NCBI GenBank assembly: GCA_013153275.1
Contig: JAADER010000026.1
Coordinates: 1 to 33,007 of the forward strand
Direction of reading: 5' to 3'
DNA length: 33,007 nt
DNA from: Thermoproteota archaeon
GTDB taxonomy: Archaea > Thermoproteota > Thermoprotei > Thermoproteales > Thermocladiaceae
Both the position numbers and the translations under genes were made by a program. The stretch's first letter is position 1; each line of letters starts with the position of its first letter. The notes under the pieces were generated by a model. That model saw nothing but the letters and a program-made list of their open reading frames with translations, searched no databases and was not told the DNA's origin. Shown piece by piece: positions 798 to 10,113 of the stretch.

Positions 798-848
798 ATC
801 CTGAAGATTCCCATGATCCAAGTATGAAGTAGAAAGTAGTTATGATGT

Positions 849-917
849 AGCCGCGGACCGCCCGTTCTCCCCTACCGGTCCAGAGCCCGCCATGCTTGGC
901 CGCTACACCACCCGGCT
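849..917 (-). ncRNA. tRNA-Gln(CUG) 5'-half-like RNA, candidate split tRNA half
   Basis: Read on the minus strand, 917 to 879 matches the first 38 positions of an archaeal tRNA-Gln. There is a 7-nt acceptor strand (AGCCGGG), then UG, a D arm with GUGU pairing GCAU around AGCGGCCAA, an anticodon 5' stem GCGGG, and the loop CUCUGGA with anticodon CUG. After A38 the tRNA pattern stops. There is no 3' anticodon strand, T arm or GUUCRA loop in the next 100 nt. Instead GGACCG (881-876) can pair with CGGUCC (860-855), and the terminal CGGCU (853-849) can pair with the initial AGCCG. A TATA box at 949-956 lies at a fitting distance. It may be the 5' half of a split tRNA gene, or a decayed or repurposed tRNA-like RNA. 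The 3' half is not in this window. Confidence 0.7.
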
Positions 918-948: not shown

Positions 949-956
949 TTTATAAA
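949..956 (-). promoter_or_regulatory. TATA box for the tRNA-Gln half
   Basis: TTTATAAA lies 35 bp (centre to end) upstream of the tRNA-Gln-like 5' end at 917. A start about 26 bp from the TATA centre would give a leader of about 9 nt. It sits between the Brix gene stop and the RNA, and no other minus-strand gene follows closely, so the RNA half appears to have its own promoter. Confidence 0.6.
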
Positions 957-4000: not shown

Positions 4001-6385
4001 CTATCCAGAACCTATATCCACTCTAAACACCTCTCTCACACAGTCAACAACAGTGTGAAATATATCATCGTCCGATGGGGACTCCTCATAAGATAGTTCT
4101 CTTAACGTACATATCGCTACGTCCCTAGCCTTCTTTAATACCTCAATACTTGTCATACCAAGATGAGGAATATAGAAGCATCTGGATCTAGCCTCATCAT
4201 AATTAACACCTAGAAGCTCAGATACGAGCCTAATAATTGACCTATAGCATGCAGTGTCCTTATGCAGTATCGTGACAGCATACTCGACAGCTCTATCAAG
4301 ATCGTACCTACATCCAAAAACGTGAAGCCCAAGATTAATCTGGCTACTCCTAACTGTCTCTATAGCTCTATGAATCTTCTCAACAATCTCATCCTCGCTA
4401 TCGTTATCTGACACCTCTATATGAGCGTCCTTAGCCTTCTCCAAGATCTTGCTAAGCAGAATCTTGGCCCTACTCCTGTCTCCGAGAGCTTTAGCTCTCG
4501 AGTACTCCGCAAGCATGTTCTCAAGATCCTCAAAGACCTCTGGAATAGACATTGGAGGATAAACGTGATCTATTATCGTAGCATATCCTCTACGTTTAGC
4601 TATGACGCCCTCCATAGGATTAGTAACAACATAGACATACAAGTGTGGTAGATCATCTATTGTTATCTCAGGCCAACAGCTCCAGGATAAACCCACACCT
4701 TTTCCGGGCCTGAACTCCAGGTATCCGTGAGTTCCAAAGTGTATGACTACATCAGCCTTAAACACACGGCTAATCCATCTATATACTGCAAGCCACTGAT
4801 GTGGTGGAGGTATCGTAGGATCGTGAAGTATCTTACAGACCTTTCCATCACACCTAGATCCCGCACATCCAAACTTAGGCTGCAGAAGAACTACAACGTT
4901 ACCGAACCTGAGACCGGGAACTACAAGCTTTCCATCATATAACGCGCCTGCGAGAGGGTTCTTAGGATCTCTAACGAGCTCACGAGGATCCCCCCACGTC
5001 TCTATCATTCGTCTCTTAGCTAGGTCTGGAAGCTCTTCAAACCATGATAGATAGGTATCTAAATCAACTAGATCCAGAGCTCCACCTCTCTCAACTATGT
5101 CCCTAACCGAGGTCCACCTGAACTCACTTATAGCTCTCCGCTCCAGGAACAGTTTTGCGAGCTCTCTCCCGCTTTCTGGAACGTTCTCAACATGGTAGCC
5201 AGCTTCTTTCAATCTCCTGAGAAGCTGGACGACGCTCTCAAGAACGTCAAGGCCGAGACCTACCGCGATGTTTGCCTCGAGACCCTTGCAAGGGGCGTTA
5301 TGTAGAACTATGGCGATCTTCCTCTCGTTTGGCCTCTTTCTACGTAGCTCAACCCACCTCCTGACTCTCCTAGCTATATATGTTGCATGCTGCCTAGCAA
5401 CGTCGAATCCACGGATCTCCCCGAACTCTCCTCTACGCGATCCTGCCAGAACTATAGGCTCTATGAGTCCATCGACCTCAGGCATTATCACCTGATACAC
5501 CTGTGTAAGATAGTCAACTCCCTGAGGAGAGCTTAACCACTCCTCGACGCTTCTGAACCACATTAATATAGGCCTCATAACAGGAACATTAAGGACCTTC
5601 AGAATATCTTGCTCCTCGCTCACTATGCTGAACCTGTCAGAGGTCATAGGCCTGTTAGCAAAGAAGAAGCTCGTGAAGTCTATCAGAAACTCAATAATGC
5701 ATTTACCATCAACTATGAAAAACTCTCTACAAGAATCAGCCTTAGACGGAGTATCTAGAAGAGGATCATGATGACCATGAGTAAACACCACTATGACTCC
5801 AAGCCCAGCCTTCTCGAGCTCCCTAACTAGAGCATCTATGGGACCTACATCACCGCTCACCCAGTGTGATCTGTAGAAGAGAACCCCAACGAGAGGCCTA
5901 TCTGCATACTTATACGACATCAAATAATCATGAACATTATAAAACACTCCCATATCGGGATGATATATGCCATGCCACGGAACCTCGATAGGAGGCTCAA
6001 CCTTCACGTCCCTATCGATCAAGCTTGCGAGAAACAGGATAAGCCTCCTATAGTTCTCTATGCCTCCTCTCATGTAATATTCTTTAGCCTTCCTTATAAC
6101 ATCTATATCAACATTAGATATAGAGATCGTCAGAGGATCTATCGATACTATAAGAACTCTATCACGAAGCTTGTTAAGAATATTCTCAAGCTTCTGAGGA
6201 ATAGTGTAAGAATGTATGAACACTACATCACAGCTCTCTATCTCTCTCAGACTCTCATCTCTCTCGGCCTGATTTACAAGCATTGCGAGACAGCTAACAT
6301 TTCTCTCTCTTGAGACTCTCTCTGCAGCCTCTCTAATCGCATCTATACATCTACCACCATATCCCACTAATATGCAGATTCTCAC
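4001..6385 (-). CDS. CobN/BchH-type metal chelatase large subunit, C-terminally incomplete
   Basis: This 794-residue protein matches the N-terminal two thirds of the CobN/magnesium chelatase H family, which inserts Co or Mg into tetrapyrroles. Visible landmarks are FTHGHHDPLLD, HNAPCKGLEANIAVGLGLDV, LLQPKFGCAG, VIHFGTHGYLEFRPGKG (from residue 549), NPMEGVIAKRRGYATIIDH (from 589) and INLGLHVFG (near 686). Typical CobN is about 1200 residues or more. The conserved last 400 residues, including the LPTGRN region, are absent, and no such piece occurs in the window. It may be a split gene with the second half elsewhere, a shorter chelatase paralogue, or truncated. It starts with GTG at 6385 beside AT-rich TATA-like sequence at 6395-6411, 30 bp after the BtpA gene. 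Confidence 0.85.
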   Translation of the reverse strand: MRICILVGYGGRCIDAIREAAERVSRERNVSCLAMLVNQAERDESLREIESCDVVFIHSYTIPQKLENILNKLRDRVLIVSIDPLTISISNVDIDVIRKAKEYYMRGGIENYRRLILFLASLIDRDVKVEPPIEVPWHGIYHPDMGVFYNVHDYLMSYKYADRPLVGVLFYRSHWVSGDVGPIDALVRELEKAGLGVIVVFTHGHHDPLLDTPSKADSCREFFIVDGKCIIEFLIDFTSFFFANRPMTSDRFSIVSEEQDILKVLNVPVMRPILMWFRSVEEWLSSPQGVDYLTQVYQVIMPEVDGLIEPIVLAGSRRGEFGEIRGFDVARQHATYIARRVRRWVELRRKRPNERKIAIVLHNAPCKGLEANIAVGLGLDVLESVVQLLRRLKEAGYHVENVPESGRELAKLFLERRAISEFRWTSVRDIVERGGALDLVDLDTYLSWFEELPDLAKRRMIETWGDPRELVRDPKNPLAGALYDGKLVVPGLRFGNVVVLLQPKFGCAGSRCDGKVCKILHDPTIPPPHQWLAVYRWISRVFKADVVIHFGTHGYLEFRPGKGVGLSWSCWPEITIDDLPHLYVYVVTNPMEGVIAKRRGYATIIDHVYPPMSIPEVFEDLENMLAEYSRAKALGDRSRAKILLSKILEKAKDAHIEVSDNDSEDEIVEKIHRAIETVRSSQINLGLHVFGCRYDLDRAVEYAVTILHKDTACYRSIIRLVSELLGVNYDEARSRCFYIPHLGMTSIEVLKKARDVAICTLRELSYEESPSDDDIFHTVVDCVREVFRVDIGSG

Positions 6386-10002: not shown

Positions 10003-10113
10003 CGGGCCGTAGCTCAGCCTGGTCAGAGCGGCGGGCTGTAGTCAGCCGCCGCTCGCACAAGAGCGCGGCTGTCCGAGACCCGTAGGTCCCGGGTTCAAAT
10101 CCCGGCGGCCCGA
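10003..10113 (+). tRNA. tRNA-Tyr(GUA) with anticodon-loop intron
   Basis: The acceptor strands CGGGCCG (10003-10009) and CGGCCCG (10106-10112) pair fully, with the C1-G72 pair typical of archaeal tRNA-Tyr, discriminator A10113 and an encoded CCA at 10114-10116. The D stem is GCTC/GAGC. The anticodon stem GCGGG/CCCGT flanks C-T-GTA-G, with anticodon GUA at 10038-10040. The T arm is CCGGG-TTCAAAT-CCCGG. A 36-nt intron interrupts the loop after G37. It lies 14 bp before the convergent deacetylase-like gene. Confidence 0.96.
10042..10077 (+). other. Intron of tRNA-Tyr
   Basis: A 36-nt insertion at the canonical 37/38 position, placed so that the anticodon stem GCGGG/CCCGT is restored. It can fold as a hairpin with AGCCG/CGGCT and CGCTC/GAGCG stems around GCACAA. 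It would be cut by the archaeal tRNA-splicing endonuclease. The exact cut could shift by one because G is repeated at the junction. Confidence 0.85.

What the first reader, a model, noticed from the sequence alone, without database searches (positions are those of the whole stretch)
849..917. Isolated tRNA-Gln(CUG) 5' half with its own promoter
Minus-strand bases 917-879 are a near-perfect 5' half of an archaeal tRNA-Gln(CUG), ending at position 38 of the anticodon loop. The T arm and 3' halves of the stems are absent nearby. Split tRNAs are known in archaea (Nanoarchaeum, Caldivirga and some Desulfurococcales). The following GC-rich segment could be the pairing arm of a trans-splicing half. 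It also has two self-complementary stems (AGCCG with CGGCU; GGACCG with CGGUCC), so a self-folding tRNA-like RNA is an alternative reading. If the 3' half is elsewhere, this would be a split tRNA-Gln.
Basis: partly seen in the sequence, partly recalled or inferred. Interest (0 to 1): 0.85.

Follow-up and report, generated by a model that had tools for sequence, protein, structure and literature searches.

The report
Split tRNA-Gln genes sharing one half
In an uncultured heat-loving archaeal genus, both glutamine tRNAs are encoded in pieces: two different front halves, one of them in this window, appear to pair with a single shared back half elsewhere in the genome, and relatives suggest that the break arose in a tRNA that was once whole.

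Summary
The finding is real and its main reading holds. Window 917-880 (minus) is a 5' half of tRNA-Gln(CUG), positions 1-37, with a tRNA-type TATA box at 956-949. The same genome (G000, 88.6% complete) holds a second 5' half with anticodon UUG (C23:18339-18417) and one tRNA-Gln 3' half (C33, 17896-17862 minus). No intact tRNA-Gln was found. Both 5' halves carry the trailer arm GGGCGGTCCGCGGCT. The 3' half carries the exact 15-nt complement, AGCCGCGGACCGCCC. In G000 the 15-mer occurs only at these three places. Four species of the genus share the arrangement; no other genus of the order has the exact arm. Other genera of the family have contiguous tRNA-Gln genes, and one genus has a short intron at 37/38 that resembles the first 15-16 nt of the trailers. 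The split is therefore probably derived. One feature looks unusual: the 5' half seems to keep nearly the whole old intron hairpin, and the trans duplex leaves from the 3' splice bulge instead of extending the intron stem. That rests on folding only. tRNA-Leu(UAA) in the same genome looks like a second, adjacent or nascent split. Expression and splicing are untested.

The parts
880..917 (-). 5' exon of tRNA-Gln(CUG), tRNA positions 1-37 (A1 at 917; C34 U35 G36 at 883-881; G37 at 880)
   Evidence: Sequence; 100% identical to the 5' halves in G001 and G002; contiguous tRNA-Gln genes in other genera align over 1-73
949..956 (-). TATA box TTTATAAA at -39 (upstream gagaaacg is BRE-like)
   Evidence: Matrix built from the upstream sequences of 33 ARAGORN tRNA genes of the same genome; median TATA start -36; 1.2% of shuffles reach this score
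867..885 (-). Predicted cis hairpin: CUCU (885-882), 3-nt bulge GG^A (881-879) at the 5' splice site, CC (878-877), loop GGUA (876-873), GG (872-871), GGAG (870-867)
   Evidence: Minimum-energy fold of the segment alone and within the constrained two-strand complex for all three CUG halves; loops differ between species while the stem columns are kept; resembles the cis intron of other tRNAs. The UUG halves do not all favour this fold.
849..863 (-). Trans-pairing arm GGGCGGTCCGCGGCT, complementary to the leader AGCCGCGGACCGCCC of the 3' half
   Evidence: In G000 the arm (up to one mismatch, both strands) occurs only at the two 5' halves and the 3' half; no exact copy outside the genus in the order
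842..848 (-). ACATCAT, end of the stretch shared with the UUG 5' half of the same genome
965..1630 (-). Upstream ORF (221 aa, no Pfam match); the 5' half follows its stop after about 47-49 nt in three species

Best explanation
This is the 5' half gene of a split (trans-spliced) tRNA-Gln(CUG). It is transcribed from its own archaeal promoter. Its transcript pairs through the 15-nt arm with the leader of a separately transcribed 3' half (G000:C33). The two-subunit splicing endonuclease then cuts after G37 of the 5' half and before A38 of the 3' half, and the exons are ligated into tRNA-Gln. A second 5' half (UUG, G000:C23) uses the same 3' half, so two 5' genes and one 3' gene supply both Gln isoacceptors. 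Shown: the three pieces, their complementarity, TATA-like boxes, conservation in four species, absence of an intact tRNA-Gln from the assembly, and two endonuclease genes. Inferred: transcription, cleavage, ligation and charging. Also inferred: the split arose in a tRNA-Gln with a short intron at 37/38, by a break at the 3' bulge.
For: Only three tRNA-Gln matches in G000: two 5' halves (1-41) and one 3' half (39-73). The 36 Rfam tRNA matches, typed by ARAGORN, include no tRNA-Gln. 15-nt exact complement; expected exact copies of that 15-mer in the genome about 0.001. Same arrangement in G001 and G002 (all three pieces) and G003 (UUG 5' half and 3' half), with the arm unchanged and extended to 18 bp by UGC/GCA in G003. 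Orthologous gene neighbours for the CUG locus (three species) and the UUG locus (four); partly shared neighbours for the 3' half. TATA-like boxes: 5' halves at -37 to -39, 3' halves 33-40 nt before the arm. Duplex gain about -32 to -36 kcal/mol. Two PF01974 endonuclease proteins, 196 and 185 aa open frames. Contiguous tRNA-Gln in the other genera of the family. Mechanism precedent: N. equitans and C. maquilingensis (PMC3218864, PMC4033280, PMC4090602).
Against: No RNA data. G000 is an incomplete assembly (88.6%, 71 contigs), so an intact tRNA-Gln could be missing; several contigs end at or in tRNA genes. The splice junction is not a textbook BHB in trans, and two candidate folds compete, with the UUG complexes preferring a trans pairing of the anticodon loop with the 3' leader. 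The TATA score of the G003 UUG half is poor, and the boxes of the 3' halves are weaker than those of the 5' halves. G004 of the same genus shows none of the pieces.
Confidence: 0.94

Rival explanations
1. Pseudogene fragments, for example left by integration of a mobile element into a tRNA-Gln gene.
For: tRNA fragments at integration sites are known in Crenarchaeota (PMC3218864). No expression data here.
Against: Two 5' halves ending at the same place with the same arm, a 3' half with the complement, TATA boxes, four species with the arm unchanged and no intact gene found.
Confidence: 0.02
2. A self-folding tRNA-like RNA acting alone: the 5' half folds on its own with 849-878 and has a separate role.
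For: The 5' transcript alone has a stable predicted fold of about -26 to -32 kcal/mol, in some species through GGACCG/CGGUCC.
Against: The lone folds differ between species. The same arm occurs as the complement in front of the 3' half in all four species. Pairing with the 3' half gains about 32-36 kcal/mol.
Confidence: 0.02
3. The split is ancestral (split-early view) and contiguous genes in relatives are fusions.
For: The split-early hypothesis exists in the literature (PMC4090602; PMC3218864).
Against: The exact arm is confined to one genus of the order. Sister genera have contiguous tRNA-Gln, with or without an intron at the same position that resembles the trailers. No dated tree was built here.
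Confidence: 0.03
4. Same split tRNA, but a more conventional BHB-like motif forms in trans (for example U35G36G37 with CCA of the 3' leader), and the CC/GG hairpin is an incidental insert.
For: Preferred by the computed optimum for the UUG pairs of G000, G001, G002 and G003 under the cloverleaf plus duplex constraint.
Against: The three CUG pairs prefer the cis hairpin with 4-bp / 3-nt bulge / 2-bp geometry. G003 lacks CCA in the leader. Vulcanisaeta-like introns and the Lys introns of the same genome resemble the trailer hairpin.
Confidence: 0.3

Closest known systems
Nanoarchaeum equitans split tRNA-Glu (CUC and UUC 5' halves, one shared 3' half; split at 37/38)
   Same: Two 5' halves that differ in the wobble base share a single 3' half; same ligation site; own promoters; complementary arms (PMC3218864 Table 1, PMC4090602)
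   Different: Different isotype, unrelated host; there the halves look like an intron cut in its loop, whereas here the intron-like hairpin seems to stay in the 5' half
Nanoarchaeum equitans split tRNA-Gln(UUG)
   Same: Same amino acid and anticodon
   Different: Split at 32/33, not 37/38 (PMC3218864 Table 1); so probably an independent event
Caldivirga maquilingensis split and tri-split tRNAs (Gly, Ala, Glu)
   Same: Same family in this scan (G005 has the length I recall for C. maquilingensis); combinatorial sharing of halves
   Different: G005 has contiguous, intronless tRNA-Gln; G000 has contiguous Glu(CUC, UUC), Ala(UGC) and Gly(CCC) genes
Aeropyrum pernix split tRNA-Asp(GUC), adjacent halves with a promoter inside the former intron
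   Same: Split at 37/38; similar to the tRNA-Leu(UAA) locus of this genome
   Different: The Gln halves here lie on separate contigs and serve two isoacceptors

Membership tests
archaeal split (trans-spliced) tRNA | 5' and 3' halves encoded at separate loci that together make one complete tRNA | tested here: met
   window 917-880 plus G000:C33 17896-17862 give a full tRNA-Gln that matches contiguous orthologs at 84-95% in many relatives
archaeal split (trans-spliced) tRNA | Complementary GC-rich trailer and leader | tested here: met
   15 bp exact in G000-G002, 18 bp in G003
archaeal split (trans-spliced) tRNA | Own promoter for each half | tested here: met
   TATA boxes at tRNA-typical distance for most 5' halves, weaker ones for the 3' halves; sequence matches only, activity not tested
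archaeal split (trans-spliced) tRNA | BHB-type motif at the junction | tested here: inconclusive
   A 5' splice bulge with flanking helices can form in cis in the 5' half; the 3' site lies in a wide junction; two competing folds
archaeal split (trans-spliced) tRNA | Two-subunit tRNA splicing endonuclease | tested here: met
   Two PF01974 proteins in G000 (C61 and C38), as in G005 and G007; subunit assembly not tested
archaeal split (trans-spliced) tRNA | No intact gene for the same tRNA | tested here: met
   None in G000-G003, all incomplete assemblies
archaeal split (trans-spliced) tRNA | Transcripts of both halves and a spliced mature tRNA | not testable with these tools
   No RNA data

The most novel reading that the evidence does not exclude
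A split tRNA of a new architecture: the break lies in the 3' splice bulge of an ancestral cis intron. The 5' half keeps a complete BHB-like intron hairpin, and the trans duplex forms the third arm of a three-way junction instead of prolonging the intron stem.
Probability: 0.5. Interest if true: 0.75.

Novelty: new variant of a known kind. Interest (0 to 1): 0.68.

Why it matters
Split tRNAs are known from few archaea, and whether they are relics or late products has been argued for years. Here one genus has split tRNA-Gln while sister genera keep the contiguous gene, some with an intron at the same site that resembles the start of the trailers. A neighbouring case, tRNA-Leu(UAA), is intronless at 37/38 in one congener, has a compact intron in another, and has an intron stem interrupted by about 145 nt with a TATA box in this genome. 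That makes the intron-to-split route directly testable. Sharing one 3' half between two 5' halves also offers a simple reason why the arm is frozen: a change would have to occur at three loci at once (inference).

Tried and rejected
A pattern for the Leu leader complement found only itself because I had set the arm boundaries wrongly; ARAGORN then showed the Leu 5' part on the same strand. Flanking genes of the halves do not match those around contiguous tRNA-Gln in relatives (within 1.5 kb), so the ancestral locus is not identified. I first took the upstream ORF 965-1630 for a Brix-domain protein; Pfam gives no match. An 8-nt likeness between the Gln arm and the Leu(UAA) intron of G001 (GGACCGCC/GGCGGTCC) was considered as a hint of intron transposition; too short to claim. 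The C. maquilingensis split tRNA paper PMC2650326 is not held; its content was taken from reviews. No paper reporting a split tRNA in this genus was found in the held library.

Full report
Observation. On the minus strand, 917-880 reads AGCCGGGTGGTGTAGCGGCCAAGCATGGCGGGCTCTGG, which is positions 1-37 of a tRNA-Gln with anticodon CUG. ARAGORN and Rfam do not call it, as expected for a gene without its 3' part. A TATA box TTTATAAA begins 39 nt upstream. The 33 ARAGORN tRNA genes of this genome with enough upstream sequence have a median TATA start of -36.

Partner genes. In the window's genome (G000: 1.39 Mb, 71 contigs, 88.6% complete) the whole segment matches a second place at 96%, C23:18339-18417. 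That is a 5' half with anticodon UUG and the same trailer. A third place, at the end of C33, holds AGCCGCGGACCGCCC-AAACCAA-ACCCGCCGACCCCGGTTCGAATCCGGGCCCGGCTA: a leader followed by tRNA-Gln positions 38-73. The leader is the exact reverse complement of the trailer arm GGGCGGTCCGCGGCT (window 863-849). In G000 this 15-mer, with up to one mismatch and on both strands, occurs only at these three places; about 0.001 exact copies are expected by chance. No intact tRNA-Gln was found. The T-arm motif GGTTCRAATCC gives 39 places; they comprise the Rfam tRNA matches, the Gln 3' half, an intron-containing tRNA-Cys-type gene on C2 that Rfam missed, and a partial tRNA-Leu at the end of C63.

Conservation. 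[quoted passage not shown] its contig ends inside the gene that precedes the CUG half in the others. The arm is identical in all, and extends to 18 bp in G003 through UGC/GCA. The CUG half lies 49 nt after the orthologous ORF in G001 and G002. The UUG locus is syntenic in four species; 3' half neighbours are shared in part. No exact copy of the arm exists in the 40 genomes of the order outside the genus that were searched. G004, same genus, shows none of the pieces and also lacks the upstream ORF of the CUG half, so it is uninformative.

Junction. For the CUG halves the anticodon loop plus trailer folds as CUCU-[GGA]-CC-GGUA-GG-GGAG: a 4-bp helix, a 3-nt bulge at the 5' splice site, and an outer stem. 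The loop varies between species while the stem columns are kept. This resembles a complete short cis intron: the Vulcanisaeta-like genus has CUCUGG^ACCAGCAGGGGUAGAA^ACCCG (genus names g2 = Caldivirga and g4 = Vulcanisaeta are my inference from genome sizes), and the tRNA-Lys genes of G000 have similar introns. The trans duplex would then leave from the 3' bulge. In the known N. equitans case the complex looks like a pre-tRNA cut at a loop in the intron (PMC4090602). For the UUG halves, however, the computed optimum pairs part of the anticodon loop with the 3' leader. The architecture is therefore open.

Origin. Contiguous tRNA-Gln genes were found in genera g2, g3 and g4 of the family, with or without the 37/38 intron. 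With the exact arm confined to one genus, a derived split inside an intron-bearing gene is the simplest reading. No tree was built, and flanking genes do not identify the ancestral site.

A second case. tRNA-Leu(UAA) in G000 (C63, 294 nt in the ARAGORN model, which labels it tRNA-Ala) has a 31-nt extra intron in the 5' part. After UUAAG it carries CGGGCCGCGGGG, then about 145 nt with a TATA box (TTTAAAGA, 31 nt before the arm), then CCCCGCGGCCCG and the 3' part. G001 has a compact intron of about 30 nt at that site; G002 has none. It resembles A. pernix tRNA-Asp (PMC3218864). Whether it is made from one transcript or two is unknown.

Machinery. G000 encodes two PF01974 proteins (196 and 185 aa open frames), like G005 and G007, as expected for the heteromeric endonuclease linked with split tRNAs (PMC3218864).

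Limits. All assemblies of the genus are incomplete, there are no RNA data, the TATA boxes are sequence matches only, and the literature library holds only part of the field.

Noticed in passing
L095 (G000:C63, about 4977-5270): tRNA-Leu(UAA) with a 31-nt extra intron in the 5' part and a 37/38 intron whose 12-bp stem is interrupted by about 145 nt containing a TATA box; compact intron in G001 (L096), none at 37/38 in G002 (L097). Candidate adjacent or nascent split tRNA.
   Followed up: partly
window 10003-10113: tRNA-Tyr(GUA) with a 36-nt intron; Rfam finds it, ARAGORN on the whole window with default settings did not
   Followed up: no
L008 2340-2483 (G000:C2): tRNA-Cys-type gene (ARAGORN: GCA, 66-nt intron) missed by the Rfam search; anticodon assignment not checked
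   Followed up: no
G000 contig ends (for example C33:19, C28:13, C71:3, C22:4, C7:4, C14:5-35): Many contigs end at or inside tRNA genes, so absent tRNAs in this assembly may be assembly losses
   Followed up: partly
upstream of the 3' half in L076, L079, L080: The 60-100 nt before the leader are strikingly A- and C-rich, with very little G or T, in several species
   Followed up: no
window 4001-6385 minus: 794-aa CobN/Mg-chelatase protein beside SecY, L14 and L37Ae genes
   Followed up: no
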